Positions 18,325-61,444 of a DNA stretch of 64,000 nucleotides are shown here, piece by piece (position 1 is the first letter of the stretch; every line of letters begins with the position of its first letter). Origin of the DNA: Thuidium tamariscinum (lineage: Eukaryota; Streptophyta; Bryopsida; Hypnales; Thuidiaceae); NCBI GenBank assembly GCA_947034885.2, contig OX344757.2, positions 9,796,001 to 9,860,000 on the forward strand, given 5' to 3'. Below the pieces are notes generated by a model. It was not told the DNA's origin and searched no databases. It saw only the letters and a list, made by a program, of their open reading frames with translations. The translations under genes and the position numbers were made by a program.

Positions 18325-21160
18325 ATGGATTCCAGAGAAGGTGAGCAAACGGCGCTTTACTTTTGGGTTTCTTGCTTACTTCTGCTGCGAAGGGCCTTTA
18401 AAAAATTCCGACAAAATTTAGGAGACTTGTTTATGGTAAAGGTGCCGTAGGTCTTTTTTTGAATGACGGATCTTTTATGAAAGTTGTTCAGTGATTTGGT
18501 GTGGCTGGTATCTTCTCTTATCTCTGCAATTCGTAGACGAAATTCTTGTCAGTTTGCTGTTCTTTCTCACTCCCGTTTCAAGAGCCTTGTCCATAACATC
18601 TCTTGAGATTTGAGACTGGATTTCCTTTCCGATGGTCAATTGGTAAAGCTGTACGTCCGATGGACTATTTTGGACATGTGATTAGGGTTGCAAGTCTTTT
18701 GCCGTAAGCGGCTTTAAAGGATGGACTTACGGTACAGTCACGTAGCTAGCGTAATATTTTAGAGCTTTGCATCCTATCAGTGTCGCATTTTTGGCAATTT
18801 ACGTGGTGATGAGTTGAGGATTATGAGTGAGTCAGGGAGAGGTCATCATTGTTCATTACTGATTCAAAGTGGGGAAGAATTTAGACCCATGCGCGGATGA
18901 GCTATACTTCTCGTAGTAGTGACATTTGCTCGACTTCCACAAAAACTCAACTTGTTTAGCATAATGGTTCCGAATGAAAGACTTTGGTACTTTAAGGTGA
19001 GAATCAAACGATGGATGCTTGCAGTAAAAGCGATTCTGAATTAGGATTGTGTTTCTAACATCGGGAATTTCAAATTGATATTTTTTTCAATCTTCGGCGG
19101 ATACAAGGGCTCAGTTCCCCGCCCCCTCCCCCCCCCCAACCCCCCAACCCCCCTTTTCGTATTCACCGTCATTGCCTTTGAATTTAACTGTCGAAGATGT
19201 GGTTTATGGTTTCGTGTTCAGGGCAAATATATGACCTTCAAGCCGGGTACTACACATCGGAAGTTGGTGTCGACGGTAGTGACTTGGACTCCTTGGGAAT
19301 GTTCGAGAGGATGACGTGGAAAGGTTTGCCTCAAAGTTCCGGCTCGTTCTGGGTCTCCGAAGATGATGAGATGGAGTCGGCTCCTCGTGATATGAAACAT
19401 AGGTGGAAGAAGATGATGCAAAAAAGAATTATAGGCATGGGGTCAGAGGATGCTGGAGATGAAAAGCAGGGGGATATGGCTGAATCTAAGTGGAAGGATA
19501 TGCCGATGGAGCTGTTAGTTCGAATTTTAGCACTCGGGGATGATAGGACAGTGGTGGTAGCCACAGGGGTGTGCTCTGGTTGGCGAGATTCCATTTGTGC
19601 GGGCGTTACTGATCTATCTTTTGCATGGTATTTATGACAGTTCTTTCATCTGATTAATTTTGATTCCCCTGCCGTTATGGGCCATTTTTTTGAAATTTAA
19701 ACTTGAAAGAATCGATTGTTCAGGTGTAAAAAAAGCGTGAGCAACCTAGTGCAATCTGTGGCGCGTAAGTTCTCCCGCCTCGAAAATTGCAGCATTCGAC
19801 GCTGTTCGTATCTCACGGACGATGCTATGAGAGCAGCTGTTGCTCATTGGCATGAATTGAGGTCCTTGGACTTGACGAATGGAACACGCCTTACAAACGT
19901 TTCGTTAATTGCTCTTTCCAATGGCTGCGCTTTACTGGAGAAGCTGGACCTTAGTGGTTGTGTGGGCGTTTCTGAAGCTGGACTTGTTGGACTTGCGCAG
20001 CATTGCAAGCACCTGAGGCACCTGAACCTCTGTGGTTGTGATAATGCCGGCTCTGATGCTGCTTTGGTGGTAAGGTCTTCAAGCTTGTGACGCATCATAA
20101 TATTTGATCTCTGATATTTTGTAATTTCTTTCGAAACTGAGTTGCCTTCCTACCTCCTTTCTTGTTTTCATTTCTGTTCATTTCTACTTGAGATCTCGGC
20201 AAGCTTACTGGGGTTGGTGGAGGCATTGCTGACAGGCCCTGCATATTTTGCTTGGCAGGCTTTAGCTCAAAATTGCAGTGGGCTGCAATACCTGAATGTA
20301 GGATGGTGTGAAAAAATAACAGATGTGGGTGTAACCGCATTGGCACGTGGGTGTCGCGATTTACGATTTATTGACTTCTGTGGGTGCCTACAGATTACAG
20401 GTTTGTCAAACACAACTTTTACTTAATATGTCATCGATCTTAATATGGGGAACAATTCTTGTGTCTTTCAAACTTTCTGATAATACCGTCTCTACTCAGG
20501 ATAGTTAGAATTCAGACCAAGGGCTATAATCGACCCAGTTCTATTGTCCACCTCAGGCGTTTCCACTAACTTTGCCCTACCACAGATCAAAGTGTAATCA
20601 TCTTGGCCGACAACTGCCTCCGTTTACGAGTTCTGGGCTTCCACTGCTGCCGCAACATCACCGACCTCGCCATTTACTCCCTCGTGAACAGCAGCAAACG
20701 CCGAGATGCATTGCGAAGCAACAAGCGGAGCAGCAGCACAGGCTCCAACACGAGAGTTCGGGACCGCAACGAGTATCCCACCACCAGCCGAAGTTCCTTC
20801 GGCTATAGCAGCGCAGGGAGCTGCAGTTCCAGCAGCGGAAGCAGCTGCAATAGCAACGCCATCAGTACATCCAAGGGTGGGGGGTTTGATACTTCCTATC
20901 TAAGGGATCCTGCAGGCTATGGCCTAGTGTCACTCAACCTTAGTGGCTGCACGGCTTTGTCCGCTCAAGCTGTGCAGGCCTTGTGTGATACCTTTCCACA
21001 ACTGCATACATGTCCAGAGCGCAGGTCTGTCATCACAAGCGGATGTCTTAATCTGACCAGTGTGCGTTGCATTTGTGTGATTGAAGCTCGCCGTGAGCGG
21101 TTGAGCCGAGCTTCTCGTACTGCCACCCAACCTTCCCATCCAAGACATCTAACTTTGTAA
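18325..21160 (+). CDS. F-box/LRR protein, SKP2A/SKP2B-like
   Basis: Probable substrate receptor of an SCF ubiquitin ligase; in Arabidopsis SKP2A acts on cell-cycle regulators (established for that protein, inferred here). Model: join 18325-18340, 19222-19627, 19724-20069, 20259-20400, 20586-21160, giving 494 residues, all introns GT-AG and in phase. The F-box lies at about 95-132 (key core WKDMPMELLVRIL, then GWRD). Cys-rich LRRs of the 'LDLSGC/LNLCGC' type follow from about 150. The C-terminus (SGCTALSAQAVQALCD, then LHTC, SGCLNLT) matches Arabidopsis SKP2A/B as I recall it. A Ser-rich insert at about 338-402 and a longer N-terminus make it larger than the roughly 360-residue Arabidopsis protein. 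The start was chosen because the 16-base first exon splices in frame; a second in-frame ATG at 19,197 would otherwise be used. Confidence 0.85.
19117..19156 (+). other. C-rich tract in intron 1 (G-quadruplex potential on the minus strand)
   Basis: Runs of C4, C5, C10, C6 and C6 separated by one to two bases lie about 65-105 bases upstream of the exon 2 acceptor at 19,221/19,222. The complementary strand could form a G-quadruplex, and in the pre-mRNA the tract is a poly-C stretch upstream of the 3' splice site. Confidence 0.7.
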
Positions 21161-22009
21161 ATCCTCTCTGCGGTTTGCTTGCTTGCCTTGTATCTTCCTC
21201 CTCTTCTTACTCGTTTTCCCAATTACGTAGAGAACGCTGTATGATACTTATGATTTGTCAATAAGGTTTTGTAGCTATAGGATTTAGTACAATTGTAGTA
21301 TAAATTTGAATATTCCGGTAGTAGAGTAACTTATCAACGAAGGTATGCGAGCTTTTATGGTTCTGTAAGGGAAGCGAAGGAACATTCAGGCACTGCAACT
21401 CTTAATTTTATTTCAAGTGCCATGCTGCCGGGATCTAATTAATTTAAATTGTGAGAGGCTACAGACGAAGTGAAGTGGGCCTTTTATGCAAGTTCTATTG
21501 ATCTTTGGGGGAGCTCAGGCTTATCCTCCCAAAGGGCATTACAAATCTCTGGCTTGCATGTTTTCAGATATTGGGTCGAACAACGTTTTGGGGTATGCGA
21601 CTATTCTCTTGAAAAAATCAACAATGCTTGAAGAGGTGCAACACCTATCGCTGCTGAATTTTTGTAGTCTGATTATAGCTCCTTTTTGCTGAGTTCATGT
21701 TGATGTGCAGACTTTTGCATGAGATTTATTGGGGATTGACTTTACAATATGTTTATTCAATTCTGTTTGTAACTTTTATTACTGCATGTCGGTACTATTT
21801 TGGTAGAGGGATTGTCTGCGCAAGATTCTATATCAAGATGCCCGAGAGTCATAGATTCTAATAATGTTCAAATATGTTTCATTTTTGTGAGGGAATTGCG
21901 TACCAATCTGTATTGCATATCATCAACCCTTTGAAGGACGGCTGTAAAATCGTTCATTTTGATGCCGTGGGAATCAATAGTTAAAAGTCCAAAAGTAATC
22001 ATTGGAAGT
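21161..22009. other. Presumed 3' UTR and downstream flank of the F-box/LRR gene
   Basis: Composition stays balanced for about 600 bases past the stop and then drifts to AT-rich. No second gene recognised; the short frame at 21,486-21,692 has no motif. Confidence 0.4.
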
Positions 22010-22230
22010 TACAGAATTGGAGAATATCTCCCCTTTTCACTCAAAATTTAGAAGTCAAAGAATTGTAAAAGATTTTCCCATTCCACTCAAAATTTAGAAA
22101 TCAGAATTGTAGAAGATCTCTTTTCACTCAAAATTTAGAAGCCAAAGAATTGGAGAAGATTTGCCATTTCTATTCAAAATTTAGAAGTCAAAGAATTAAA
22201 GAAGATTTTTCCTTCACTCAAAATTCAAAG
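22010..22230 (+). repeat. Short tandem repeat array, about 45-bp unit, 4-5 copies
   Basis: The unit core 'cactcaaaatttagaag' followed by 'tcaaagaattggagaagat' recurs at about 22,037, 22,083, 22,125, 22,172 and 22,216, with diverged copies of 44-47 bases. Confidence 0.8.
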
Positions 22231-23989
22231 GATAAATAGATGAACTTGTCCTACATGTAAGGATTCTCTATCATCCATTAGACACCAAATGTCCTTGCCG
22301 GTGATTAAGGGTAAACCCTAATACACCGAGAGTATATAATTTGGTCAAAATCCTCTACCTTGGATGTTTCATTTTGCCATTGAAAAATCAATGGAATTTT
22401 TGTTTTTTATTTTTTAGTGATTAAGTTACATGTCTTATATGAAGACTAACATTGAAGAGCTTAAATGTTCAACCTTTAAGAATCAATGTATAGTTGGAGA
22501 TGTAGTTTTCTTTCTCAATAGTGTTTGGATGAAAGTCATCTTAATTTGTAGAGATACTTTACTAAATTGTTGTCTTATCTAACGGTTGGATTTGGCATTA
22601 TTAAAGCACATATTTTTCTATAAAAGTGTAAATGACAAAGTATGTTAAGTAGTTGACTAAGTCAAAATTGCATTGATTCTAATTCAAAATGGGATTTGCA
22701 AAAATAAAATCATAGATTTGAAGAATACAAAAATTTCAAAACATCACCATGTGTAGAAAGAACCTCATTTCAAATCCATTCCAACAAAATTTACTCAAAA
22801 AATGACAATATTTTGCTTGTAATTGAATCTAGAAAGAATTTTAAAATTTTTCTTTCAAAAATTATAGAAAAATATTGGTGATAGCATTGGTGAATCTAAT
22901 TGCACTAGTGAAAATTGAAAATGAAAGTCTAAAACTTTTATGTGCATATCATAATCAAAATTATTCTTCAAAATTGTACTTTATAATTATTTTTTTGAAA
23001 TCATCAATTTTGGTTATGACTTTGGACACTTAGGGGTTAAAACTTTTAGATTTTTTTGTGAAATTTTGAAACTACTATGAAGTTTTGAATAAAAAGTGAA
23101 AAATTTAATGTCAAATGCAATATACGCTTCAAAAATCTGAAAATTTCTCTATAGGTGTATATTACAGTCTAAAGCAATATGGTAAATTTAAAAAAAGATC
23201 TTGTCATTCTAAAATTGCAAATTAGCCTTCTTCAAGACCAAAGTTCAAATTCTAGTGAAACATTGAATTTTAGGAATTTTTTTTAATTGGTGTAGAATTT
23301 AAACTTGATAATACTCATTTCAATCTTTGGGCTCAAATTTTTCAAAAAAATCATCTTTATTGCTTAATTTCAAATCTAGAGGAAAGGAGACAAATTGTCA
23401 AAATATACTACATGGTGATCTATATTTTGGGAATCAACATTTCTCTTAAAATATTACTACCATTATTCATTGAATTTTTGTTGCCCACACCTATACACCA
23501 CTCTTTCCAATGAGTCTTATTTAAAAAAATGAAATTCAATTATTCTCTACCTCTTCCTAACACGTGGCTCCAAAGCTTTTCATTTGTTAAAAGGACATTA
23601 TTTCTATAAATACAAGACTACCTTTGTAAGGACAAATGACCTATCACTAAATTATTTTGCCAAAAATGATCTTAGTGCATTCTTTATGTGTGGTAATCTT
23701 GAAATCATCCACTAGCCAATTTTTTGGCAACAAGCATTCATTAGGCATGTTTAAGGAGACATGTCTATCACTACTTTTCAAATTTCAAAGTCCTCTTTGT
23801 ATGTTCCCATTTTGCAACTAGATATGAAATCATTTAAAAATGAAAATAATTCACATCTTGTATAAGGCATATACATTTCATATTTCTTTTAGAATATTTG
23901 GAATTGTTGTGAATTTTGAAAAAAAATTCATATCAAATGGAAAATATGTTGCAAAAATAAAAAAATTTACTCTACACATGTACAATATA
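22231..23989. other. Intergenic AT-rich stretch, nothing recognised
   Basis: No long frame or clear element ends seen. Confidence 0.4.
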
Positions 23990-24557
23990 CTACCTCTGTC
24001 CCAAAATGATCTTCCTATTTTACAAAATATTATGGATTAAGGCCAAAAATAACATTTTAAAGTCCCCTTTGGATTTGTAAGCAAAGCTTGGTTCATTCTT
24101 AATATCTTTGAAACTTTGAGTTTTAAGAACCTTTTCCAAAGTGCAATTTTAGAATATAGGAAAGTAGAATTTTGGAGGCATTTTCAAAAAGCACCAATAG
24201 GCACTTAAATTTTGAATTTGAGGTTGTTATTTTATGGGTGATTAGTATGGGCCTAAGACCATGTGTGAACCTTTGTTCCACCTACCAAAGCTTTACCTCC
24301 TTCAAGTAGGCAACACTCAAAGAGATGCAAAAAATACAAACAAAAAGTGTTGATTAACCCCTTTAGTCATTTCTTTTGTCTTTTGATTGATGATATTATG
24401 AATGGAAGGGAAATTATTGCTTAAAGTTGTTTTACTAGTCTTGGACAAGAATTAAAATCCAAATTTGACAAATTTTCATATCACAAAAGGCAACAAGAAG
24501 ATCATTTTGGGACAAAAAATTAAGGCCAACAAGAAGATCATTTTGGGACGGAAGGAG
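23990..24557. mobile_element. Stowaway-like element, 568 bp
   Basis: The left end CTACCTCTGTCCCAAAATGA and the right end TCATTTTGGGACGGAAGGAG are inverted repeats with few mismatches, and TA flanks both sides (23,988-23,989 and 24,558-24,559). These are the classic Stowaway/Tc1-mariner MITE ends. The right end is tandemly doubled: 'caacaagaagatcatttt' occurs twice, about 38 bases apart. It is longer than most Stowaways and non-coding. Confidence 0.7.
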
Positions 24558-24559
24558 TA

Positions 24560-25758
24560 GTTTACAATATTGTTGTACAATTCAATTTATTGTATCATTC
24601 TAAAATCACAAAGTCAACAATCCATGGTTATAAGCAAAATGCAATAAAATTTGAGTTTTAGAAATTTCTCGAAATTCCAAATTAAAAAAGAAAGTGGATT
24701 TGATATCCTTTGTTTCATCAAAAATTCTAAGAATATCAGTTCATGGCAAAAATTTAGATGAAGGAAAAGGAGTAGAAATTGCCAAAATATACTATAACAT
24801 AATCCTTGGATTTTCCATATCTTATGAAGGAAAAAAAAATTAATATCACAAGGAGGGAATATACAACACCTAACATTGAAAATGGATTCAAGTACCCCCT
24901 TTAGGCTTCTTAAGAATAATTGTTTCCAAAAGTTAAATCATAGAAGACAAATAAAATTGCTTTTAATTTTGGTTAAAAGTCCAACAAACAAATTTCTAAA
25001 GATAGAAAAACTAACTTTTATAGGTTATGAAAGGAAGTTGGAAATTGGTAATAATTTCAATTCAACCAATTTGACGCTAGGCTATAATGATTTCTAAACC
25101 CCTTTAGTACATTGTTGAATAAATTAAGTTAGTTTTAATATCTCACTCATGTAATAGATTCAACACTTTTACCTAGTATATAATATTTTATGAACAAAAA
25201 AAGATGCTAATAATATAAATATTTGATAAGATTATTTTTTCCATAAAATTATTTTTTTAGATTTGGATATCTATTTTTAAAAGTATCTTCAATTGAAACT
25301 ATTGCTTGGATAAAGAATTCACTTGATAAATTTTTGTATCAATACATGATACATGCTACATTTACAATGAAGTAAAAAACTATCAAATAAGCTCTTTAAA
25401 TTACTATATATATTTTTTGCTTCTTGAAATATGAAGAATGGTTCCAAACATGAAAAAGGCTACAAATGCCATAGCTTTTGTACAAGGTTGTGCCTCAAAA
25501 GGATAAAGCATATGTGAGACCTATTTGTAAAATTGTCCCATCTAAATTTCAACCTAAAATGTACAAAATTCATACATGAAAGCCTAAGACCAATTTTTAA
25601 CAGCTATTACAGCTATTTTTAATAGTTTTTACAACTATTTTTAACATTTAAGAAAAATTCATGGTTTATTCATATGGAGCCCAAAAAATGCATTCTTAAA
25701 GAATCTAGAATACTCTCTGCAATTGCAAACAAGCCCCTACAAAAGCTTTCACAGTTGA
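24560..25758. other. Intergenic, nothing recognised
   Basis: AT-rich. The frame at 24,876-25,097 has no motif. A short run of 'cagctattacagctattttt'-type repeats lies near 25,600. Confidence 0.4.
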
Positions 25759-25762
25759 TTAA

Positions 25763-26688
25763 CCCCTAAAGGACCATTGTCCCCTCGGGGGACAATTTGG
25801 AGTTCGAGCAGGTTCCGTAGACTTCAATTTTTGGTGAAACCTTTTGAAACTTTCTTACAAGATAGAAAAACTGATTAGCTTTGTGGAAATGTAATTTTTA
25901 TTTTTATTTCAATTGGTGATTGGGAGCAAAAGTTATACCACAAAAAGTCCAAATTTTTGTTCGGCAGGCAGAATTTTTTTTGCAAAATTTCAAAGTTTAA
26001 TTTTTTAATTTTTTTTTCTGAAATAATATATTTTTGCCTACATGTGAAGCTTTGATTCAATCTATTTGGACTTATAATGAGAAAGTTATGGACAATCTTA
26101 TTTCTCGGACAATCTAAACAATTTCTCAAAAAAATAACCTATAGGATTCATTTCTAAATGCAATTTTCACATTTTTTCAAAAAAAATTGTTGGACAAGGT
26201 TATGTTTACTTGCTAGAACAATCTCACCATTGGAATTATTGTATTTCAATCCCACCTTAGAGTTATTAACCATTTAGTTTTTCTTTAAATCTTGGACCTA
26301 CATCTACTTAACAATTTTTTAAAGAATGAAAATCAAGTGTTTTTTGTGTAAATTTTTTTCTTAAACTCTCAACTCAATCATCAGACACAAAATTTTTTTA
26401 ATTCAAAGTCTATAGTGCAAAAAAATTCAACAAACGGCAATCAAAGTCATCTGAAATTGCAATCCACAGTTCAAAAAAAATTGTATTTCCAACTTTAAAT
26501 GCTCACATCTTCTAATTTATACGTTCAAACTTCGTGAAAATTTTACCACATGATCTCAATCAAGTTAAGTACAAGATCCTATGGTTAGATTCTTAAAAAA
26601 TTATTTTCTTTTGTTTTCTTGGATGAATGCAACAGAAATGGCAGTTTTGAGAGGTTTATGACAGAAAAAGGCCTTGGTCCTTTAGGAG
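25763..26688 (-). mobile_element. Non-autonomous TTAA-family element (926 bp) with TTAA on both sides
   Basis: Left end CCCCTAAAGGACCATTGTCC, right end GGTCCTTTAGGAG, with TTAA immediately outside both ends (25,759-25,762 and 26,689-26,692). It lies in the opposite orientation to the copy at 7431-8363 and matches it along most of its length. No transposase frame is present. Confidence 0.75.
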
Positions 26689-26692
26689 TTAA

Positions 26693-27396
26693 TAGGAACC
26701 ATTATCAAACCCTTATTCAGACACATTTAGGTGTTGTTACCTTAGCAAAGCTGCTTGTTCAGATATCAAATAGCAAAACATTTCTTAAAATGAAGGGCAA
26801 TCATGCTATCACTACCCTAAACATTAGGATTGCAGACTCCATGCACCTCTACAGTCAAATCAAAACCTCAAATCAAGAGCAAATGGAAAATAAAGGGTAT
26901 TCAAGAAAACTACAATTGCCACCAAGAACAAAACATTAAATTCAATAGCCACCAAAGAAAGGAAGTAGTTGTATTGCCATAATAATTGATATATACATCA
27001 CCAGACTATACCCTGTCAATAAGACCTGAGTATTCATGCACAAAATGGCACGGTTATCACAAAACATATCAATCAAGATGGCAAGTTCGTTGCCATGAAC
27101 CTTCTGTACAATACTTCCTCCAGAAAATCCAAGTGAATCTGTTGTAAAATTTGTTACAGCTACGCCTCGTTATGATCAAACGAGGATCAAAGGGCCCAAA
27201 AGAAAAATGGTTTAAGTTACCGTTCCAGCACCTAATCTTGCGTTTTCTTGTCCAACTGCAAACACAAAGTGCTTCTCCTGAACTCACTCGTGCAGCTGAA
27301 GGCGGCACTTGGAAAAATTTGGTGTCTTCAGCAGACCTCAATCCTCAAACTCGTTCTTGAACGACGAAATGCTCTTCGCAAGTTTAGTGAGAGAAG
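26693..27396. other. 3' flank of the BED/SAM gene
   Basis: Composition rises toward that of the gene from about 27,050, consistent with the 3' UTR of the minus-strand gene that ends at 27,397. The opposite-strand frame at 27,151-27,360 shows no motif. Confidence 0.4.
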
Positions 27397-30300
27397 TTAA
27401 AATGTTGTCGCAGCACCATGGTCAAAAGTATGTTTGACCTGTGGTGGTTGTCTTTGCGAAGCAACATCCACTTCCCTCAACATCTCAAAGCGGCCATTTC
27501 CTTGATTAGCTTGGTACGCTAACAGATTCGTATAGTAGCCCGCCCTTCCTGGTGATCCACCTGGTCCAACCTGTAAGAAGAAGTAGAACATGTTCATAGG
27601 TTAACAAGCGAATAAGCACAAGAGTCTCTACTCCAAATAAAAATTTCACGTCTCCTTCCATTCAATCCTCAATATATTCCTCAATGATTGACAATTTCAA
27701 AAATCCTATGTCACATGTTAGAATACCACTATTCCTATATCTACATGTCACAATTCTATGGATGTAAGAAATTCAGTGTTTGGAATGATGGACCCAACAT
27801 GCAATTATTGTTTTCAATTTATTGAATACAAGAATTGTGTACGTTTCAGTGAACTCAGTTTCCCCCTGGAGGTAGAGACAATAAACGTACTAGACTTCAA
27901 GACGAACAGAATACATGCAGCGCTGACATATGTCAGAGAAGTTTATCGCAGATTGCGATGAAAAGCCACAGAAAGCCGAGCAGAAAAACACAAGTGAAAC
28001 GCAAAACACGTGATCTTACATCTGTGACATCTGGATTTGGTAGGGATAAATTAGGAGCTGTAAGGCTCGAAGGAGATACTAAATGCGGTGATTGGAGTTG
28101 TTGCCCCTGTTGCTGTTGTTGCTGCTGCATCCACTTAGGATAGGGGTCGAGTTGTGTAACTTCTTCACTATCTGAGGACCATGTCTGTGTAAGCATCGAT
28201 GGGCGCTAGCTTTGAGCTACATCAAACAAAACCAAAATTCAGAAAGAATTGGAAAGTTAATCACAGCGGACTAGTCTAGAGAGCAAGAGACTATCCCTAG
28301 TAGTCAGTGGTAATCTACCAAGGGAGATAGAGTCCGAAAAAACTCACCAATGCATGCCACTTCTTTACATGTATCCTCCGATTCCGGCCATTTCTCATCT
28401 TCTGGTTGTGCAAAAAATATTTGCTCTGCATTTCAATACACAAACAGAAATGAGTTTGAAGCCACAATAAGAGTTCCTCAAGTGGACAGAAACACATGCA
28501 GTGGCATACAAGTAAACTGCAGAAGATCTGGTCGAAAACCTTGCTTTCGAATACACGTCAGGCAAATGCATCCACAACACTAGACAATGAGAACATTACA
28601 AAATAAATGATTCATTTTTGTCACCTCTTTGCCACTTCTTTGCAGCACCCTTGATCCCCCACTCCTCACCAAGCGTAAGCTGGTGATGTTGGTTAATCGA
28701 TTCTAATAAAGACGGGAGTTCATCAAGATTAGACATGAGAGTTTTTGCAGTGAATCCCATCTCCTTAATTTTGACGACGGTTTCAGGTCGAAGTCCAAAA
28801 CCTTCAAAGAAGGTGTCAAGGTCTATGGAGGCGATAATCGAGCTCTGACAAACAATAAAACAAACAACTTCACGTCATAGGATGCTAAATCAGATTCCCA
28901 CAAAATGCTGAAAAGACCGAACAAATCCAACGCATAAGGAAAACAATACAAAAACCTCGTCAGACTCAAAAGGCTTTGCACATGCCCATCTTGCCATATA
29001 CAACAGCAGTATCAAGAAATGCACACGATGTTTCTAAATTTCAAGGCTCTCTGCTACTCAGTCCCAGAGACTCATCCGGGTACGTTCAAGCGTGACCTCT
29101 TGCGTTAAGCATGAGGGTAACTAGTCTGTAATATGTCCCACGCTCATTAGAAATGCTCCAGAACGAACGTTTCAAACATTCACGAAAAAGCTTATGTGCA
29201 AGACACCTTCCCGCTAAATGACAACGCAAAATTGAATATTTTCTACAAACAAAATCATCTATTCTCTCTTCTTGCCCGTTTAGGAAGTACCCTCTGTAAT
29301 AATTACTAGGATTAGGTACCAAGAGAAAGACTTCATTTCACTCACATACTAAACACAGAAGCTGAAGGAGACCCTAAATTTCCTCCTCGATTAAACAACG
29401 AACCACTTCAGATTACTTAAGTTGAAGCAACAAGCATGAGATAAAAGGCTTAAACTTTCAAAGACATTACCAATTTAAACCAACTCAAATTAACCAGAGC
29501 AGCCCCAGATCAACCCTCACTTTGCAACAGCTACTTGTCCTTCAGTATCTCTCAGCGTAAATCATCACTCACAAACGTACCTCTCCTAAAAGTCGAGCCT
29601 ATAGAAGAAGCAAGGTGATCAAAAGGATTTTAACCACGCTTTTAAGGTTTAAAATTCTCAGATTATTCCAAACACAATGATTGACGTTCCTTTAAAATGA
29701 ATCTACTTGCTTAGAGTTAATCTGGGCAGTCTGGTCAAATCGGAAACTAAGAATGGCGGATACTATCCCCGCCCTAATTTCAGAAAACTTAATTTTTCTG
29801 CCGGAATCCAAAAAGTCATTCACGACCACAAGGGAAAATTGAATTCGATGTCGTTCATCGCAAGCTAATCCCGTAAGGACCAATGATTCATGATTTTAAA
29901 AGTGATCTCATCATAAAATTCAGATGAGGCCCAAAAAATTCATCATCACAATAAGTGAAGAACTCTTCATAAGTTGGTCAAAAGAAGAAAACAAAATTGG
30001 AGTAAAGACAGTTCCGATATAATTTCCTCAAGAGTGCTAAGACAAACATAAGGCCAAATTCGGGCCTCATGGTCGTTCAAAGTTAAAAAAAGCGAACCAA
30101 TCCCGTTCACAAGGAACCCACAGAAATCGCATTTGCAAGCAAAATCAATCTTCAAACCAAGGATAACGTCGTTTTGTAAAGGTAGGGTTTTCTTGCTTTG
30201 GTTCAGTATTGTGTATTGTTTCGCGGAGTTGCTATTAGGAAAAGTCACACTAGCCAGCCTGTTCATCAACGAATTCGGGGAAAGCTTACGCTGCACAAAC

Positions 30301-30905
30301 GATGAGTACAAGATTTTCATCCAATTCGGAGAAGCTGAGCAGGATATCAAATGAGAGTGGGCCACGTGAAGTCTTCAGCGAACTGGGGAAACCAGAGGAA
30401 AACTACTGTGACTCCCCTCATGACAATGAAATGAAAAAGGAAGAGAGAAGAAACCTAAAATGGAATTTGAAGGCATAATTGTTTGTACCATTCGCAAGAG
30501 CAGTTCTTGCTGCGAGTTCATCCGGTCGCCCTTCCGCCCCGACGTGAGCGCTTTCCCGTCGAAATGCTCGGCACTTCCAGACGAATGATCCGACGCCGAC
30601 GACGCCCCGCGCGGCCCTCCCGCGGAACCCCGCATCTTGCCCCCCCCTGGCTTGCGCTTCTTCTGCGTCTGCTCCCGGGCGATCTCGATCAAGCGAAGCT
30701 CCTCGCGTGCCTCGTCCGGCACCGTGGGACACCCTGTCACGCCCGCCTGCCGCTTGTTCCCCAGCAAATGCGCCCGGATCCGCATCGCATTCCCCTGAAA
30801 CTCCTTGTCGCAGTGAATGCACCGAACCAGCGTCGCCATTCCATGCTTCTCCGGCTCCTTGATCACGATCACGTGGTTCCATTCGATGCCTTTCACCTTC
30901 ACCAT
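27397..30905 (-). CDS. BED-type zinc finger plus LEAFY-type SAM domain protein (novel architecture)
   Basis: Model on the minus strand: exons 30905-30489, 28844-28625, 28425-28348, 28171-28020, 27570-27397, giving 346 residues, all introns GT-AG with matching phases (0, 1, 1, 0). Exon 1 encodes a BED-like finger with W9 and ligands C29, C32, H46 and C59, then a basic KKRK stretch and a Gly/Ser-rich linker. Exon 2 (residues about 146-212) reads like the N-terminal SAM oligomerisation domain of LEAFY: KIxExGFTxxTL, then GEEWGIKGAA. A poly-Q tract starts at about 254. The C-terminal exon (GYYTNLLAYQ and on) is unknown to me. No LEAFY DNA-binding domain is present. Inference: a self-associating DNA-binding factor. 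Start: first ATG before the BED core; an upstream in-frame GTG was not used. The 1.6 kb first intron could hide an exon, and two adjacent genes cannot be fully excluded. Confidence 0.65.
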
Positions 30906-31060
30906 CGCTCTCCCTCTCTTTCTCACACCCTAAATCCCAATCCACAGAAGCAGCAAAACGTCCAATGCCCGCAAAACTAAAACCCTACCCACACCCTCCC
31001 TCAAACCCTAAAATGTCACCGCTTCTGCAAGAAAGGAAAGGAAAATATTGAAAACGGAGG
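30906..31060 (-). promoter_or_regulatory. Proximal promoter/leader of the BED/SAM gene with telo-box motifs
   Basis: Two copies of AAACCCTA (about 30,981 and 31,003 on the + strand, so TAGGGTTT on the gene's strand) and a related CCCTAAA near 30,928 lie within about 110 bases upstream of the start codon. Telo-boxes of this kind are known near the starts of many plant housekeeping and growth genes. The transcription start itself is not seen. Confidence 0.45.
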
Positions 31061-32966
31061 CTTGAATGAGATGATTGTGTTTGTTTCCATTCCGGTAGCG
31101 ATGATTCCAAGACACAGCGAAAGAGAATTCGAAAGCATGCGCGGTTGCGATGTCTGGTTCTCTCCGCAACTGCGGAATGACCCTACCACTGAGTCTGTGG
31201 ACGATGCAGTCTGTAGTGAGCTTCGTTGCCCCTTTCTTTTCCATTTCCGACTTTTTCTTTTCCATTTTCGACTTTTTTCTTTCCATTTTCTTTTAAAATG
31301 GTGAAGAACTCTCTACGGTTCTGAGAGCATCTTCAGTCCCAATGGTATATTGGGCCTTCAAATTTGTTTCTAATTTTTTGCTATGTAATTAGAATTTGAA
31401 ATTACTTTTGGTAGAATCATGTCCCAAACTATTTTGAGTGAACATTAAAAAAATTCAAATTTAGATATTATACAATGAAAATAAATTGCTTCAAAAGCAA
31501 ATTAAAAATAAAATTTATGGAAGCTTTAGCAAATCAGTCTTACTTAAAGCAAATTTGCTCAAGTGCACTCCAAAAATACCTTGTAAGTTGTTGCTTGTAA
31601 AATTCATTTGGTATTTGTGACATTTAAATAAAAAACATTGTAGTTTCAATGTGGGAGTAATTTTTATAGTAACCTCTAGATTGATTTGGGTTCCCAACAC
31701 AACCTCATACCTTTGATTTGACCAAAATTCATGAAATTCTATGTGTATAAGTAAGAAGTGCATTTTGTGAATTTTAAATACTTAAAAAAAAATTTAGGAT
31801 GACTATTTATTATTTCAATAAAAGTGAATTTAGATGTTTAGAATTTTTTCAATTTTTCAATTTAGTAACATGATTTAGAGAATAACTAGACTTCATATTC
31901 TTGCACTAATTGAATTACTAATTGAGTATGTAAAATCAAGCACCAAAATTAGGTACTTAGATAAATGAATTTGAGTTTGACTAATGCATATATACATTTT
32001 AATGGCAAGGACCTTTACAAGTTTATTTATAAAAGGCTCTAAAGGCCCTATATACAATATCATATTTGATTCTTAAAATATACATTAAATACAAAACCTA
32101 TATCATTAGATTTAAAATATGACAATTAGTATTTTTCATTTGAATGTCATTTTGATATTTAAAACTTGTCACATTCAAATATAATAGAACACCATACAAT
32201 AAAAATATGTGACGCATTAAATGACATCTAAGGCCTTGGAAGACTACAAGTTTAGGACTATAGGAACGTAGAAACTATTGCGGGAACATAGACATAGATC
32301 CAATATAGTCAAGAGAGGACCACATCATTGATTTTTTTTTGAAAAAAAATCAAAATTTGAATTTTTTCATTTTTTAGGATCAAAATTTATTATTTTATTA
32401 TTTTATTTTAATTTTATTTTTAGTAATTGCTGGCTAACAGTGGCCAACAATTATAAGAAGAGTTTTGAAATAGACTTCCGAAGGCCTCAAGTGTCTTCTA
32501 ATAATTTTGTAAATTCTCAACCACATAAGAAGTTCAATACTTATTAGAGCCAAATGCCAATGAATTTGATTCAATATGACAACACTATCACTACCTTACA
32601 CTTGATTTTGTAGACCTTCTATGTCAAATACACAAAAAAAAAAACCATGTCGCAAGTTGCAACTACCATTGGATTATATGGAGAGCATCCGGGTATCAGG
32701 GGCTTTCTGGTCCCGACTTGGCGGGTAAAAGGGCTGGCGGATAACAATCAGGAAATTGGCGGAAGTCACCCTGAACCCTAAAACTTTAGTATTGCAAGCA
32801 GGTTGCTCGCATCACTGTGGTTGCTCTTTGCTAGAAGACACAGAAATTCGAACGAGGTTACTCCAAATTTTCTTGGATTCTGAAACCTGTCTGCCTTTCG
32901 AAGCATTTAAAAACAATTTGTAGTGATTTTGAGTTTTTTTGAAAGAATTTGGGGCAAGGAGGAGCG
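31061..32966. other. Intergenic between the BED/SAM gene and HYPK
   Basis: 31,300-32,650 is AT-rich debris, with a partial dispersed repeat at about 32,225-32,345 ('gaagactacaagttta', 'tattgcgggaaca') related to 7.03 and 12.6 kb. A pure (A)n(T)n-rich stretch follows. 32,690-32,966 is balanced and contains GAACCCTAAAAC near 32,772, probably the HYPK promoter and leader. Confidence 0.45.
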
Positions 32967-33299
32967 ATGGCGGACGAGGGTGTGGAAGTGGCGGGGAAGC
33001 CAGACTCCAAGGACTTGCAACAGCAGAGCAAGGCACTTGATTCCCTGACGGACCATGTCGAGGACCGTCAGCTGGACTCCACGCGCGTGCAACAGGCGAT
33101 GGCCTCCATCGCGGCCACTTCAGATGCGGATCGGAACGCGCAGAAACTCCGGGAGAAGGAGCTCGCGGCGGTGAAAATCAATGCCGAGGATGTGGACATC
33201 ATTGCGAACGAGCTCGAATTGGATAAGAAAGTGGCGGAGAGGACGTTGCGAGAGCACAAGGGCGATGCTGTAGCTGCGATTCGCTCTTTCTTGAAATAA
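32967..33299 (+). CDS. HYPK: HYPK homologue (huntingtin-interacting protein K), NatA-associated
   Basis: Intronless gene of 110 residues. HYPK binds the NatA N-terminal acetyltransferase (NAA10/NAA15) at the ribosome and modulates its activity; it also has chaperone-like behaviour (family knowledge). The C-terminal NAC-like UBA domain is clear: VKINAEDVDIIANELELDKK, then AERTLREHKGDAVAAIRSFL up to two residues from the stop. The N-terminal half is acidic and charged with a 'TDHVEDRQLDS' region, as in the family. The start is the ATG followed by GCGGAC (MADEG); an upstream in-frame TTG at 32,949 is not a plausible start. Length and order agree with plant HYPK. Confidence 0.9.
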   Translation: MADEGVEVAGKPDSKDLQQQSKALDSLTDHVEDRQLDSTRVQQAMASIAATSDADRNAQKLREKELAAVKINAEDVDIIANELELDKKVAERTLREHKGDAVAAIRSFLK

Positions 33300-33487
33300 T
33301 AGGGTTTTCGTTTGAATTAGGAATTTCGCTCCTTTGACCTAATATAGGTTGGCAGGACAATCGTAGCGTTGCCTTGTTTTTTCATGACAATCGTTTTCCC
33401 GAATGGTAGAACGAAAATGTTTAAGTGCATGCGAGAATAGGTCTCTAAGTGTGGGCCGAGCTGTTGGTTTTCAGCAGCCAGCTGTGA
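33300..33487 (+). other. Presumed 3' UTR of HYPK
   Basis: Directly follows the stop, with balanced composition and no further coding signal. Confidence 0.4.
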
Positions 33488-33937
33488 GTCAAATTGCATA
33501 CCCGTACACTTCAATTTTTGCCGACTCTTCGATCTCGGTATTCAAGCTGAGATGTTTCAGCATTAGTTTCCTGTCGTATGTCTGTTTTCCTTAATTCGAA
33601 TGCTTCTGAAACTTGCTCTTTGTGCAACTCGATTGGGGCTCGTCTGGTCCTGTGCTACAGTGTTCTCAATTGGCCTGACATTACTTCTTGAGGTACGACG
33701 ATTAGACTTCACATTTTTGAGTGAACAGCATACCGGTACACTTCAATTTTTACACTCTTGTATCTCCTTACTGAAGCTGAAGACATTAATCTTCTAGCTT
33801 TTGGAACATTTGCTTCCTATCGTATCTCTGTTTGATACGATGGCTTAGGAAACTTGCTCAAATGGGGATTGACTGAATTTGTATCGCGTTGGGCTCAATT
33901 TGTCTGGCATCTCTTCATGTATTCTCTTGAGGTATGA
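33488..33937 (+). repeat. Diverged direct duplication (two copies, period about 240 bp)
   Basis: About 33,488-33,702 and 33,728-33,937 share colinear blocks: 'cataccc/ggtacacttcaattttt', 'aagctga', 'ttcctatcgtat/ttcctgtcgtat', 'gaaacttgctc', 'ggggctcgtctgg/gggctcaatttgtctgg' and 'cttgaggta'. It lies just downstream of HYPK. Confidence 0.65.
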
Positions 33938-34700
33938 TCATGACGTCGTTTGCACTCTTCCGCAAGATTGGTGGTAAATTCTCTTTGGAAGCCACTTGGC
34001 GAGTCCTACTGGCTCTTCCGTTCAAACTAGATTCATGGTACATGATTCGCTTCGTTTTCTGCAGTTTGTACTCAATTTCAGATTTGGGTTGGTCATGTAG
34101 TTTATTCGAGAACGCCCAAATTTTCGCCGAATATTGGCAGGTGGCCCAGTGACTAGAAAGTACGGTTATATTAGAATATTGTATATGAACTTCTAGAGGA
34201 ACGCGGTTACAAACATGGTGCTTCGTGGAACCAAAGAGCACTGTCCGGACCATTTCAACACTGAAAAGGCTCCCCAGGGCCTCGATCTATGCCTGAACTA
34301 AATTTGACCTGTTTGTGTCATGTGATCTACGTCAGTCACAAGAGAGGTGAAATCTACAAGGGTTGCTTCATCCATTCGCCCGTGGAGGTGGCGGTCACGC
34401 GGTTTGATGACTCACCATAACTTTTTTAAGACTTAAATATTTCTCACTGCAGGTGTGACGAACTGTCTGTAGAGTCTGTGGAGTTGTCCCGATGTGGCTA
34501 AAGCTGTATTACGGTACTACCCAGTGTATGTATAGGGGAGAGAATGTACCCGAGGTGTACATTTGAGGGGAGAGGGTGTCATCTCACTCGTTTGAGAGGA
34601 GGGTTCTTATAGCAGGGCGCTTTGCTTTCGCTCCAAGCCACAACCTTTTGAGGAAGATGACGACGTTGTAAGAATGGAGTACATAAATTCTTTAAGCTTG
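33938..34700. other. Intergenic, no gene recognised
   Basis: Balanced composition. An acidic frame ending in FEEDDDV at about 34,630-34,671 before a GTAAGA could be an additional upstream exon of the next gene, but the implied intron would be only about 50 bases, so I do not include it. Confidence 0.3.
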
Positions 34701-34721
34701 ATTTAGACTGTGCAGAGAATT

Positions 34722-35353
34722 GGAGTGACATTCGCTCAGACACCGACGACGAGGTTGCTGTTTTCAATTTGCATGTCTGGTGAGTGCCTGATCCCAGTTA
34801 ATTGGATTGTTTTGTGTTGTAGAAGCTTGGAGCTTGCGTTTGTGTTTTGGCTGGACCGAGAGGTCTACATGTGGTTAAAATGTTGGTTTGCTTAGTTGAG
34901 AAATGTGATTGTCATTGCATGTTTCAAGAATGTGACTGGAATACTGGAGGATTGATGAGCTGCTGGTAGCTGGGGTCAGTGTAGGAGTGGGATCAGGTCC
35001 TTACGTTCATAGTATCCTCCACATTAGTTAGTTTATAGTCTAAATTGACAGAATGACTTTAACTGGGATTTTGTTGCAGTGGCTTGTCGACAGGGTTAAT
35101 TAAGGCCATGGAGTATTATGATGATGGTGCCTACGAGCGAATCAGCAAATCGATTGCGGAGTCACGACGTGGGACGTGGATGCCGCCACGGCGTCGTAAC
35201 AGAATCAAGAGGAAGGTTGTCGCCAGTTGCCTTGTGACGCTTCTTGGGATCTGCTGCTGCGCGTACAGCAGCGCGGACCCTGCTGGACCCCTGGAGTGCG
35301 ATGACGAACCTGTCATTACCAAAGATTCTTTCGTAAACATCAGTTTCCAGTAG
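34722..35353 (+). CDS. Possible small single-pass membrane protein (hypothetical, 5' end uncertain)
   Basis: Two blocks join in phase: an acidic exon ending at 34,779 (NWSDIRSDTDDEVAVFNLHV, donor GTGAGT) and an exon at 35,080-35,353 (acceptor TTTTGTTGCAG). The second exon carries an ATG at 35,108 that alone would give 81 residues. The second part reads EYYDDGAYERISKSIAESR, then a very basic patch (PPRRRNRIKRK), then a hydrophobic stretch (VVASCLVTLLGICCCAY) that could span a membrane, then an acidic tail. The basic patch before the segment suggests a cytosolic N-terminus. I do not recognise the family. No ATG opens the first exon in frame, so the true 5' end is unknown. Confidence 0.4.
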
Positions 35354-38002
35354 CCTAAGTTAAACACCCTGACCTCTTTAATCTGACTGCCTATCAATTT
35401 TTAGAGGTCGTATTAAAGAGGTTTGAGTGTAGACGATGCAAGGGACGGAAGTGCATCGAGTACCAATATCTTGATCTTCAGCTAGTGCCAAGCCTGTGAT
35501 GGTTTTACTTGGTGCATATTTTGAAGTTTGTCTGGACTTACAGAGGGAGAATAATTCTAAGAGATAGCATCAGGTTGCTTCCAAGTTGCTCTTTCCTGGG
35601 GCTCTCTCTTTTGCGCAGAATATCAAGTTGGGTTATATATTTGCTACTATGGCATGTTTCAGAGCTCCAAGATTGGGACATTCAAGTGCCCAGAGCTTCG
35701 AAAACTAGGATCGGTATGGATCTGAGGTTTTTGCTCGAATTTCGTTGAAACCTGCCATTTTATCAAATATGAAGTTGAATTGTACTCAAGTTTTAAAGTA
35801 AACCAAGCTACCATAGCAGTGTAATTATGTACATTATCTGTCTCCATTGTATGCACTATTTCTGATCTACTGTGGTGTCTTTACGAAAATACACATTTTC
35901 ATTTTCGGCAATAGTTCGAGGAAGAGATTCTTAGAACTTATGGAGGAACCTATTTGGCTTTCATACAATCTGGTAGTTCAGATGTTTGTGGATCCATGAA
36001 ACTTTTCTGTTAAACTTAGCTTCTTTAACAACTTTCTTGGATCATTCTGCATACTGGAAATGATTTGTGTTTGTTTTTGTTTGTTTGGGGGATGCTGTAC
36101 CTTGTGCAAACTATTGAAAATTTGCTTGCAAATTATATGTGAAAATATGATTGCATATTGTGTGCTTTCATAGGTAATGTGCCAGGTGCTTAAAAGCATC
36201 ACTTGAAGAGTTGTTGTCATTATGTATATCTCCTACATCAATATGTACCTATTGTTGTTGAAGCAATTTTAGATCATTTATAAAAAGAAACTTCATTGAT
36301 TTCTTATAACTTTTGTATACAATACTCAAATCATGCAATCTTTGGTGCATTTAAAAGCTCCTTTCATTTGTCAATTAGAATGTGTATTTTCTTGATATAT
36401 CTAATATAGAAACTATATATAGTAAGAAAGTGGTGTTTTTAGGTGTCCCTATCTAATAGCCTTATAATAATGTGGAGAACAAAATGTGTTCAATGAATTA
36501 CCTTGAATTTTGATGTAGAACTTAAGATTACACATTTACATTTGATCATAAGATGATTGTATGGTTGAAGATTGCTATAAAATGCAAGCTTGTCTATATA
36601 TTGTAGGATAGATAGACAATTGTATTTTTATTATAGTAAAATTGTAGAAAGACCTCCTTGCCTTCCCAATGCAAAATGTTATGTTTACTTTAATAACTAT
36701 TGACTAACTACTTAGGTGATTGGCTTGCATCTTTCCATTATTAAATCCTCAATGGTTCTATGAATACAATTTGTATATGAAAACCTTGGAAATTGTAAGT
36801 AAACTCCATTCTCTAAATTGCATTATGAACAAATTAAAAAATCATCTCCAAATTCAAATTCTATAAGCATTAATAAGAAGATTCAAATTAATTTTGGCCA
36901 AATTCATTATGGCCATTGTAGTCCAATTTAGAGCTTTATTTTTGGATCCAATTCATTGTTGTTGCATTCTAATGTAGTTTTTATTGCATTGAGTGTACAA
37001 TTGGAACTAGAATTGGGATGGGAAGTCACCATTTAATGAATTCAAAGAACTCACTTGTGTAGCTTCTACATAGTCATGGCAAAAGGTTCATTCATTATTT
37101 TACTAAACCAAGGGGGATATTTGAATTTCCATTGGAACCATTTAGGAAAGTAGGAGAATTACATTAGCATCTAAATAAACAAGAATAGTTCCTCCTTAGG
37201 GTCGCCAATGGGAAGCTATATGTTTTTGCTTTGATCACTTTTAATGTGCATGTTTTCATCCAAAAAAAATTTGATAAAAATAAATATGAAATAATCCTTA
37301 AATAATCATTCTTATATAAAAGAAAAAAAAAATTATAAATCCAATTATTATAACTATGTGCATGGAACAAATGGTCCATAATGAGTTTTCCTAAATCATT
37401 ACATAGTGTGTTGTATTGGATCTAGTAGCAATGTACCTTTGGTTACTTAGGAAGAGTAAATTATTATATACTAAGTTGTACTGTATATTCTTGTTTCCAA
37501 GCCACCAAATTTTGTTGGTATAGCCCTCTTGCCCTCATATCTTAGATGATTATATTTTGTCCAAACTAGTAGTTAGAACATACCTACTGGATTAGTAAAG
37601 ACTTCAACATACAAAACCATTGGTAGGGTTTTGAAACTACATGTACATTTGAAGTCATGAGGTTGCAACTAATCTAATGGGATATATTTCACTTTATTTT
37701 TCAAGCAACTTCCAAAGTTGGATGAACTCATGATTAATTTTCAACTTGCACAACTCTTATTCTATACCTTTAGTATTTGAATTGATTACTAAAAAATTGA
37801 ATCTATAGAGGATTCAATTAGTCGAAGATGGTGGAATATCCCCCAAGGTTTGTTAGATAGACTCAAGCTTATGAACATGACAACAAAAAATAGATTCAAT
37901 ATTTTCAAACATTCTCGTTTCTTCTTATTGCTACTTCAGAAGTGTACATGAAGACATGTTGCTGTACAAGTCTAAAAACTACAACTACCACTATCTCTAT
38001 CT
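35354..38002. other. 3' flank and AT-rich intergenic, nothing recognised
   Basis: A stem (ACCTCTTTAAT near 35,371 with ATTAAAGAGGT near 35,412) lies shortly after the stop of the preceding frame. From about 36,200 the sequence is AT-rich without frames or clear element ends. Confidence 0.4.
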
Positions 38003-47274: not shown

Positions 47275-47869
47275 TTCTCTCCGCTACGTTAGTGAACTCT
47301 GCATTCGTCCAGCACCAAATATTTCCATGCTAACCCTTCTATAATCCTCTCGACTCGCCATTTCTAAGGTAATCCACGCCACAACAAACACTAGCAGCCC
47401 GAGTTGGCTGGAATGCGCAATTAGTGACACTGACTTAGCAATTTGGTGAAATTACATGAAAGAAATTCGCATTGAAACAGTAGAATAAAGATGCGTTTCT
47501 CAATGCGTGCAGCAGAATATGGCAACTACAGTTTCGAGAGTAATATCTGAGACGCATATCTCATTAGGTTTGAAAATTTCGTGGAGCATGCGTCTTTCAG
47601 TGAGACAAATGTGAGCAAATGCAGGTCATGTTTAGCTTCGGGAATGCAAATTCTCGTCTTCTCGACATTCTTAACCCTTAACGTCGACGCGGATGCCAAA
47701 CGTCCGATGGATGACAGAGAATCTTTCACTGTGGGAAGAAAGAGCAACCATTCATCTTTGGAATTTTGTGTGGAAATGGGAGATCTTCTACAGTACTTTG
47801 ACTTGTAATGAGCACTTCTGGAATTTTTTGAACAAGTGACTTTCATGGTATCAACATGTATTGGAGAGG
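47275..47869. other. Upstream region of the ARF-GAP gene
   Basis: Balanced composition just upstream of the start codon. The frames on both strands around 47,526-47,846 show no motif. Confidence 0.35.
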
Positions 47870-56939: not shown

Positions 56940-57141
56940 CCTTCAAGTAATTTTCTGCAGAAACTAAGGGCTGGCCTCTACACACACTCTCTCTCTCTCT
57001 CTGACCTCAAAAAAATACCAAGCCTTGTTCTGCTACTCTTCTAGTTCTGGCTGAGGATCTAACTACATTCTGCAACACCGGGTTTTTTTTGTCTTCTTTT
57101 TTTTTTAAGATGTAAGAGATGGGTTGCTACAAAGGAACGCT

Positions 57142-60655: not shown

Positions 60656-61444
60656 TTGAAATCAATACATGCTATAGATATCTAAAATCTAGACCTATCC
60701 AAGATGTTTCAAACTGCGTGGTCTAAAATCTAAATCTATATGTATCTTAGATGTCTAAAAATCTATACTTGTTCTAGATACCAGTTTTCAATTCAAACTG
60801 CGCGGTTTGAAAAATGGCATTTGGAATACCACCATTTTAACAAAATTTGTCATCTCCCTTGAGATTTGACTAAAATGCATTGAAAGTGATTATAATTAAA
60901 TCTGTATAATATAGGAGTTGCACATCTCAAGTGTTGGTAGTCAAAAGGAGATTCTACATTCTCTTAAAATGCATTTTTTGGACACTATGTGAATAAATCA
61001 CAAATTTTGAAAGTGTTGAAAATAGTTTTTTCCAAAATCAATCATAGACTCTCATGAATAGTAGGAATACATTTTAGGCAAGAATTTGTAACTGTGTGTG
61101 GTTTTGGAAAGCAAGCAATTTTAGATGTAGTTACCTTTGTGCATCATTCTAATATGGATTGAAGTAATTTATGGAGTAGGGTAGTTCAATGCTTTGAAAG
61201 TAACCACTTCAAGGTTGGTTTGACTATCATGGTTTGCTTTGTCTTTTACATGAATTTCAATGAATGGGATAATTTTTAGCTAATTTTTTAATCGAAGAGA
61301 AATAGTGACATCTAGAATGTGACGACACAAGTGATTTCATATTTTTTGAAGCTTGCGTTATTGAATTACTTTTGAGTTTTCAAAGATTTTTATCAAAAGG
61401 CATCTATCCTTGGTAGTAGGTTTGGCAAATCGTAGTGCTCGTTG
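60656..61444. other. Intergenic with degenerate internal repeats
   Basis: 60,656-60,820 repeats short phrases such as 'atctaaaatcta' and 'caaactgcg(t/c)ggt'. Otherwise nothing recognised. Confidence 0.4.

What the first reader, a model, noticed from the sequence alone, without database searches (positions are those of the whole stretch)
27397..30905. BED zinc finger fused to a LEAFY-type SAM domain, without the LEAFY DNA-binding domain
Seen in the sequence: exon 1 carries a C2HC BED-like finger (C29, C32, H46, C59). Exon 2 carries a segment that aligns along its full length with the LEAFY/FLORICAULA N-terminal SAM domain (LDxxFxxxGxR, KIxExGFTxxTL, GExxGIKxA). The remaining exons are poly-Q and unknown, and the strongly conserved LEAFY C-terminal domain is absent from the gene. 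From family knowledge, SAM_LFY is confined to LEAFY itself, where it drives oligomerisation. Inference: an ancient domain shuffle produced a second transcription factor able to self-associate through a LEAFY-like interface, perhaps even with LEAFY, but binding DNA through a transposase-type finger.
Basis: partly seen in the sequence, partly recalled or inferred. Interest (0 to 1): 0.88.

Follow-up and report, generated by a model that had tools for sequence, protein, structure and literature searches.

The report
LEAFY-type SAM domain without LEAFY
A plant gene appears to join a transposase-style zinc finger to the self-association domain known from the flowering regulator LEAFY, while lacking LEAFY's own DNA-binding part, which suggests that LEAFY's assembly module was reused in a second regulator; the joining of the two parts still needs RNA proof.

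Summary
On the minus strand (30905-27397) five open exons with GT..AG introns give a 346-residue model. Exon 2 encodes a SAM_LFY domain: 41.3-45.2 bits, cut-off 25.2, no other SAM family at E up to 10; best solved structure is Ginkgo LEAFY SAM, E 1.1e-5. It is far diverged (22 of 64 columns identical), yet the five published LEAFY polymer-interface residues read T, T, E, K, R. No LEAFY DNA-binding domain was found in the frames scanned nearby. The exon 1 finger (C29, C32, H46, C59) fits zf-BED best but below threshold (12-17 bits, cut-off 20.6). Not shown: that RNA joins finger to SAM (frame allows it, but rival first exons exist), the exon 3/4 junction (weak acceptor), expression, or conservation in other plants (no plant collection was searchable). 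Most likely a BED-like/SAM_LFY regulator that self-associates and might co-assemble with LEAFY: a new arrangement of known domains.

The parts
30489..30905 (-). exon 1, 139 codons, ends in phase 0; carries the BED-like finger
   Evidence: open from ATG to a GT donor; donor in the 89th percentile of 265 GTs; GC 63%, third-position GC 81%, annotated frame has the best codon score of six; two donors inside it, at 30828 and 30897, score higher and are also phase 0
30729..30881 (-). BED-like C2HC finger, residues 9-59 (W9, H11, C29, C32, H46, C59)
   Evidence: zf-BED is the best Pfam match for this region: 12.2 bits in the full model, 14.4 in exon 1, 15.6 and 17.2 trimmed, cut-off 20.6; single-sequence model shows three strands, then a helix 40-48
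28625..28844 (-). exon 2, phase 0 to phase 1; SAM domain exon
   Evidence: acceptor second best of 273 AGs in 26900-31400; donor in the 90th percentile of 265 GTs
28635..28820 (-). SAM_LFY domain, residues 148-209; interface residues T171, T174, E181, K208 and, just beyond, R212
   Evidence: Pfam SAM_LFY E 1.5e-10; 4ude E 1.1e-5; helical single-sequence model whose short Foldseek list is led by SAM domains, not significant
28348..28425 (-). exon 3 (model), no known domain
   Evidence: acceptor 95th and donor 97th percentile
28020..28171 (-). exon 4 (model), poly-Q at about 28107-28127; 5' border doubtful
   Evidence: open frame, but the acceptor is in the 62nd percentile; the strong acceptor at 28216 (98th percentile) gives a stop after AQS in this phase
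27397..27570 (-). exon 5 (model) with stop codon
   Evidence: acceptor 99th percentile; no Pfam match at E up to 10
28956..28997 (-). rival 14-codon first exon that would give a SAM-only protein through a 111-base intron
   Evidence: phase 0 with a better donor score (2.2) than exon 1 (0.6); but 0.57 such exons are expected per shuffled intron 1

Best explanation
An intact plant nuclear gene encodes a fusion of an N-terminal BED-like zinc finger with a diverged LEAFY-type SAM domain, followed by a low-complexity tail. Most likely it is a transcriptional regulator: the finger contacts DNA (inferred from family), and the SAM domain polymerises head to tail through the mid-loop face (T171, T174, E181) and the end-helix face (K208, R212), giving cooperative binding to clustered sites. 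Because both faces resemble those of LEAFY, it could also enter LEAFY polymers and divert or cap them. Shown: the SAM_LFY assignment, the interface residues, the open exons, and no LEAFY DNA-binding domain in the frames scanned nearby. Inferred: the splice from finger to SAM, DNA binding, self-association, contact with LEAFY.
For: SAM_LFY above cut-off and no other SAM family at E up to 10; LEAFY is the only solved-structure match at E below 0.3; alignment score far above 5000 shuffles. Published interface residues T72, T75, E83, R112, R116 (PMC4844672 section 5, read) fall on T, T, E, K, R: the first four by the alignments, the fifth by ungapped continuation. Exon 1 ends and exon 2 starts in phase 0, with the second best acceptor of the region; the SAM exon has no ATG of its own before the domain in its open frame. 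The one other first exon found inside intron 1 is of a kind expected by chance. For the finger region zf-BED is the best match in all 4 forms scanned. The exon 1 frame has the best codon score of six.
Against: The finger is below the zf-BED cut-off, and its last C lies 13 residues after H46, against 7 in the published plant numbering (H45, C52). The exon 1 donor is moderate (0.6); two donors inside exon 1 (30828, score 1.5; 30897, score 2.2) are also phase 0 and would drop the finger, and a 14-codon exon in intron 1 scores 2.2. Codon scores favour the annotated frame only for exon 1, not for exons 2-5. AF2 models came from single sequences with modest confidence (mean pLDDT 68.5 and 59.9), and no Foldseek match is significant (best E 5.4 and 0.92); 4ude is not in the list. 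No relative was confirmed in the collections scanned, which are prokaryote genomes and viral contigs.
Confidence: 0.52

Rival explanations
1. Two transcription units: a BED-like finger gene that ends in intron 1, and a small SAM_LFY-only protein starting from a short exon inside intron 1 (for example 28997-28956). The SAM-only protein would act as a small interfering protein that caps LEAFY polymers.
For: A phase-0, 14-codon first exon with a better donor score than exon 1 joins the SAM exon through a 111-base intron; exon 1 can read on to its own stop within intron 1.
Against: Such an exon is expected by chance: mean 0.57, and at least one in 44% of 300 shuffles. Exon 1 is open up to a usable in-phase donor.
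Confidence: 0.18
2. The gene is a real fusion, but the finger is not a BED finger: another small zinc finger, perhaps not DNA-binding.
For: zf-BED score below cut-off; other weak metal-binding or finger matches follow; no convincing solved-structure match.
Against: zf-BED is the best match for the region in all 4 forms scanned and rises as flanks are trimmed (E 0.2, 0.04, 0.016, 0.0051); W9, H11, CX2C, H46-L47 and a following C agree with residues published as conserved in plant BED fingers.
Confidence: 0.12
3. A decaying or chance exon capture (pseudogene): a SAM exon derived from LEAFY lies downstream of a finger gene and yields no working protein.
For: Weak acceptor at exon 4; the strong acceptor at 28216 gives an early stop in this phase; codon scores of exons 2-5 do not favour the frame.
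Against: Five open exons with no internal stop; interface residues retained although only 22 of 64 columns are identical to Ginkgo LEAFY.
Confidence: 0.1
4. One gene, but the mature mRNA uses a donor inside exon 1 (30828 or 30897), so that the finger is spliced out and a short leader is joined to the SAM domain.
For: Both donors are phase 0 and score higher (1.5, 2.2) than the exon 1 donor (0.6) by the approximate weights used.
Against: The exon 1 frame stays open far beyond these donors and has the best codon score of six, with third-position GC 81%.
Confidence: 0.05
5. The segment is an ordinary SAM domain that only resembles LEAFY's.
For: Foldseek of the weak model lists animal SAM domains (5 of 10 matches) and not 4ude.
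Against: Pfam lists SAM_LFY and no other SAM family; phmmer finds LEAFY and no other SAM chain among 13 matches; those Foldseek matches have E 5.4 or worse.
Confidence: 0.03

Closest known systems
LEAFY/FLORICAULA (SAM_LFY PF01698 + C_LFY_FLO PF17538)
   Same: SAM_LFY domain over profile positions 6-70 of 80; both head-to-tail faces retained in sequence
   Different: no C_LFY_FLO in the frames scanned nearby; N-terminal finger; 45 bits where a Ginkgo segment scores 122
Plant zf-BED genes (22 classes; PMC9296551)
   Same: W-x-H, CX2C, H-L and a following C, as in the conserved residues printed there
   Different: below the Pfam cut-off; no SAM or LEAFY partner domain in the section on classes that I read, which does not spell out all 22, and no 'LFY' in the main text; no hAT dimerisation domain in the model at E up to 10
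SAM-domain transcription factors such as Drosophila Yan and TEL (both named in passages of PMC4844672; other details recalled)
   Same: a DNA-binding domain plus a polymerising SAM domain in one protein (inferred here)
   Different: different DNA-binding domain and SAM sequence family; here the SAM is of the LEAFY type

Membership tests
SAM_LFY domain family (PF01698) | profile score above the curated cut-off of 25.2 bits | tested here: met
   41.3 bits in the model, 45.2 for exon 2
SAM_LFY domain family (PF01698) | head-to-tail interface residues T72, T75, E83, R112, R116 | tested here: met
   T, T, E identical, R112 to K, fifth R (by ungapped continuation); residues from PMC4844672 section 5, alignments
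SAM_LFY domain family (PF01698) | SAM fold, five helices, similar to 4ude | tested here: inconclusive
   helices 9-14, 20-29, 33-38, 43-54, 64-72 plus a short 3-6, mean pLDDT 68.5; 5 of 10 Foldseek matches are SAM domains but at E 5.4 or worse, and 4ude is not listed
[quoted passage not shown]
   absent from the model and from the frames scanned
zf-BED (PF02892) | profile score above the curated cut-off of 20.6 bits | tested here: not met
   12.2, 14.4, 15.6 and 17.2 bits in 4 forms
zf-BED (PF02892) | W-x-[YH]-F, CX2-4C and H-[LT] motifs with a later C (PMC9296551 section 17) | tested here: inconclusive
   W9, H11, C29-C32, H46-L47, C59 present (by eye); F is V, the G and T before H are N and A, and C59 lies 13 after H46 against 7 in the published numbering
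one fused gene | RNA joining 30489 to 28844 | not testable with these tools
   no RNA data held; phases agree
DNA-binding transcription factor | sequence-specific DNA binding and nuclear location | not testable with these tools
   none

The most novel reading that the evidence does not exclude
SAM_LFY is not private to LEAFY: early land plants keep a second, long-diverged SAM_LFY regulator that carries a transposon-derived BED finger and co-polymerises with LEAFY, steering or capping LEAFY assemblies on DNA. LEAFY-family surveys would miss it because they keep only full LEAFY proteins, and BED surveys because its finger is below threshold.
Probability: 0.25. Interest if true: 0.85.

Novelty: new variant of a known kind. 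Interest (0 to 1): 0.62.

Why it matters
LEAFY proteins are characterised by two Pfam domains, SAM_LFY and C_LFY_FLO (PMC6588583 passage), and LEAFY's SAM was reported to have no sequence homology with other SAM domains (PMC4844672 passage). A SAM_LFY protein without the LEAFY DNA-binding domain would give LEAFY a possible polymer partner or antagonist, and a new handle on what LEAFY oligomerisation does outside flowers. It would also add a partner to the domains found with BED fingers in plants.

Tried and rejected
Searches for relatives of the SAM exon in genome contigs and viral contigs and of exon 1 in viral contigs: 127, 81 and 10 stretches matched a pattern, none confirmed by tblastn. 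These are prokaryote genomes and viral contigs, so this says nothing on conservation in plants. tblastn of the model against the window found no second copy; the one match outside the gene has E 9.0. NCBIfam: 0 families for exon 1 or exon 2. PDB sequence search with exon 1: 2 matches, best E 0.41, not convincing. Foldseek of the exon 1 model: 140 matches at E<=10 (50 shown), none at E<=0.001; a Hermes hAT transposase chain is rank 26 at E 3.7, which I do not use as evidence. Codon-usage test trained on 1161 codons from 9 window ORFs, of which 7 have a Pfam match at E<=0.01 (20570-21157, 56607-56942) have none but lie beside matched ORFs: it favours the annotated frame for exon 1 only. No tRNA gene.

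I considered that the SAM might belong to an ordinary SAM family and rejected it. Literature: 'SAM_LFY' with 'BED' 0 papers; 'LEAFY', 'SAM domain', 'BED' 1 paper, the LEAFY structure paper itself; 'SAM_LFY' 3 papers, of which I saw passages of two and the listing of one. Seven further searches showed no such fusion in titles and abstract openings; three of these lists were capped at 20 of 230, 551 and 456 papers. That the architecture is not in print is claimed only for these searches of one open-licence library; domain databases such as InterPro could not be asked. Papers: PMC4844672 (passages, sections 5 and 6), PMC6588583 (passages, section 11), PMC9296551 (abstract, passages, sections 6, 15, 17), PMC8742948, PMC4701952 and PMC11063897 (passages).

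I also corrected the description of the codon training set and the wording on the zf-BED rank.

Full report
What was checked. The finding names a minus-strand gene at 30905-27397. I read the sequence, listed open frames and rebuilt the model: exons 30905-30489, 28844-28625, 28425-28348, 28171-28020 and 27570-27397, all introns GT..AG, 346 residues and a stop. That it is a land plant is an inference from the SAM_LFY domain itself (plant-specific, recalled), the introns and the AT-rich context; I did not identify the species.

The SAM domain. hmmscan against 24736 Pfam models gives SAM_LFY at 41.3 bits for the whole model and 45.2 bits for exon 2 alone, cut-off 25.2, covering profile positions 6-70 of 80 (6-69 for exon 2); no other SAM family appears at E up to 10. 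Against solved structures the best match is the Ginkgo LEAFY SAM chain 4ude at E 1.1e-5; the other 12 of 13 matches, all focal adhesion kinase entries or constructs, start at E 0.37. A pairwise score of 93 to the Ginkgo segment compares with a maximum of 42 in 5000 shuffles; 22 of 64 columns are identical. The Ginkgo segment scores 122.1 bits and the same stretch here 44.9, so the domain is a distant cousin, not a recent copy of a typical LEAFY.

The interface. PMC4844672, sections 5 and 6, names T72, T75 and E83 on the mid-loop face and R112 and R116 on the end-helix face, and shows that T75E or R112E in Ginkgo LEAFY SAM makes it monomeric. Counting along the Ginkgo sequence from T72 reproduces T75, E83 and R112, and the alignments put T171, T174, E181 and K208 of the model on these four; the fifth, R212, follows by ungapped continuation. 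So four are identical and one is a conservative change, in a domain that is otherwise about two thirds different. That is the best sequence evidence that it can still polymerise. The structure model from the single sequence (mean pLDDT 68.5) is helical; 5 of its 10 Foldseek matches are SAM domains, but at E 5.4 or worse, and 4ude is not listed. I treat this as weak support only.

The finger. For this region zf-BED is the best Pfam match in all 4 forms scanned: full model 12.2 bits (E 0.2, third row of that table, after SAM_LFY and a weak match elsewhere in the protein), exon 1 14.4 (0.04), residues 1-85 15.6 (0.016), residues 6-60 17.2 (0.0051), cut-off 20.6. As a test of one family named beforehand, E 0.04 over 24736 models is about 2e-6 (my division), so this is hardly noise, but it is below the curators' threshold. 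Of the 13 N-terminal positions printed as conserved in plant BED proteins (W7, H9, F10, C20, C23, G33, G38, T39, L42, K43, H45, L46, C52; PMC9296551 section 17), my alignment by eye gives 7 identical (W, H, C, C, H, L, C), two conservative changes (L to I, K to R) and 4 different or not placed; the last C lies 13 instead of 7 residues after the H. The single-sequence model has three strands, then a helix at 40-48, as I recall a BED finger to have, with no significant structural match.

One gene or two. Exon 1 ends and exon 2 begins in phase 0. With approximate splice weights that I recalled, the exon 2 acceptor is second best of 273 AGs in 26900-31400, and the exon 1 donor is in the 89th percentile of 265 GTs. 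The SAM exon has no ATG upstream of the domain in its open frame. Listing ATG-to-donor stretches with a donor score of at least 0.5 that reach the SAM exon in phase, I found four: exon 1 itself (score 0.6), two shorter forms of exon 1 ending at 30828 (26 codons, 1.5) and 30897 (3 codons, 2.2), both of which would drop the finger, and one inside intron 1, 28997-28956 (14 codons, 2.2). In 300 dinucleotide shuffles of intron 1, stretches like the 14-codon one arise 0.57 times on average at score 2.0 or more, with at least one in 44%, so that one is no evidence by itself, but it keeps the SAM-only rival alive. RNA would decide.

The tail. The exon 4 acceptor at 28171 is poor (62nd percentile), and four other AGs lie shortly before it, the first at 28216 (98th percentile), which in this phase gives a stop after AQS. 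Other donor/acceptor pairs also reach the poly-Q frame. The C-terminal third of the model is therefore uncertain. Codon usage learned from 9 window ORFs does not favour the annotated frame for exons 2-5; I report this as a result against, though the exons are short and AT-richer than exon 1.

No LEAFY DNA-binding domain. C_LFY_FLO was not listed in the three minus frames of 23001-32900 (E<=0.5), the three plus frames of the same stretch (E<=0.1) or the three minus frames of 33001-39000 (E<=0.01). SAM_LFY itself is recovered, the weak finger is not. The rest of the window was not scanned in six frames; of 48 ORFs of 95 codons or more, 10 were scanned: 7 gave matches (HYPK, ArfGAP, aquaporin twice, kinase, F-box, leucine-rich repeats) and 3 none.

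Why it could have been overlooked. The LEAFY survey in PMC6588583 kept only sequences with an intact FLO_LFY domain (section 11). The BED survey in PMC9296551 states a pfamScan e-value of 1.1e-50 (section 6), describes 22 classes with no SAM or LEAFY partner in the section I read, and states that Physcomitrella patens and Selaginella have no zf-BED genes (passage). A sub-threshold finger joined to a SAM_LFY domain would pass through both nets. None of the ten literature searches showed such a fusion in its listing, within one open-licence library and with some lists capped.

Mechanism, graded. Shown: SAM_LFY identity, retained interface residues, open exons. Likely: finger of BED type, one spliced gene. 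Inferred: DNA binding through the finger, cooperative binding by head-to-tail polymers, mixed polymers with LEAFY. PMC4844672 reports that the Physcomitrella LEAFY SAM joined to the Arabidopsis LEAFY DNA-binding domain complemented the lfy mutant (passage), so LEAFY-type SAM function is conserved from moss; whether this far more diverged SAM shares it is open.

Verdict. It is a new combination of known domains, interesting because in the papers I could read SAM_LFY is described only from LEAFY. The score is held back by one genome, no RNA, a sub-threshold finger, competing donors and no test of conservation.

Noticed in passing
window 32943-33296 (+): HYPK-type UBA gene (E 2.9e-19), transcribed away from the BED/SAM gene with about 2 kb between their starts.
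   Followed up: partly
window 31233-31290: 21-base tandem repeat, 2.8 copies at 91%, upstream of the gene's start codon.
   Followed up: no
window 61443-61838: 201-base unit, two copies at 95%.
   Followed up: no
window 22005-22225: Tandem array with 46- and 87-base periods.
   Followed up: no
window 55484-56343 (-), 46921-47283 (-), 38745-39149 (-), 19188-20087 (+): Ordinary gene pieces: aquaporin (MIP), ArfGAP, protein kinase, F-box with leucine-rich repeats.
   Followed up: no
window 30489-30905 against 27397-28844: Sharp drop in GC at the third codon position, from 0.81 in exon 1 to 0.28-0.47 in exons 2-5: consistent with different origins of the two parts, or with a 5' GC gradient.
   Followed up: partly
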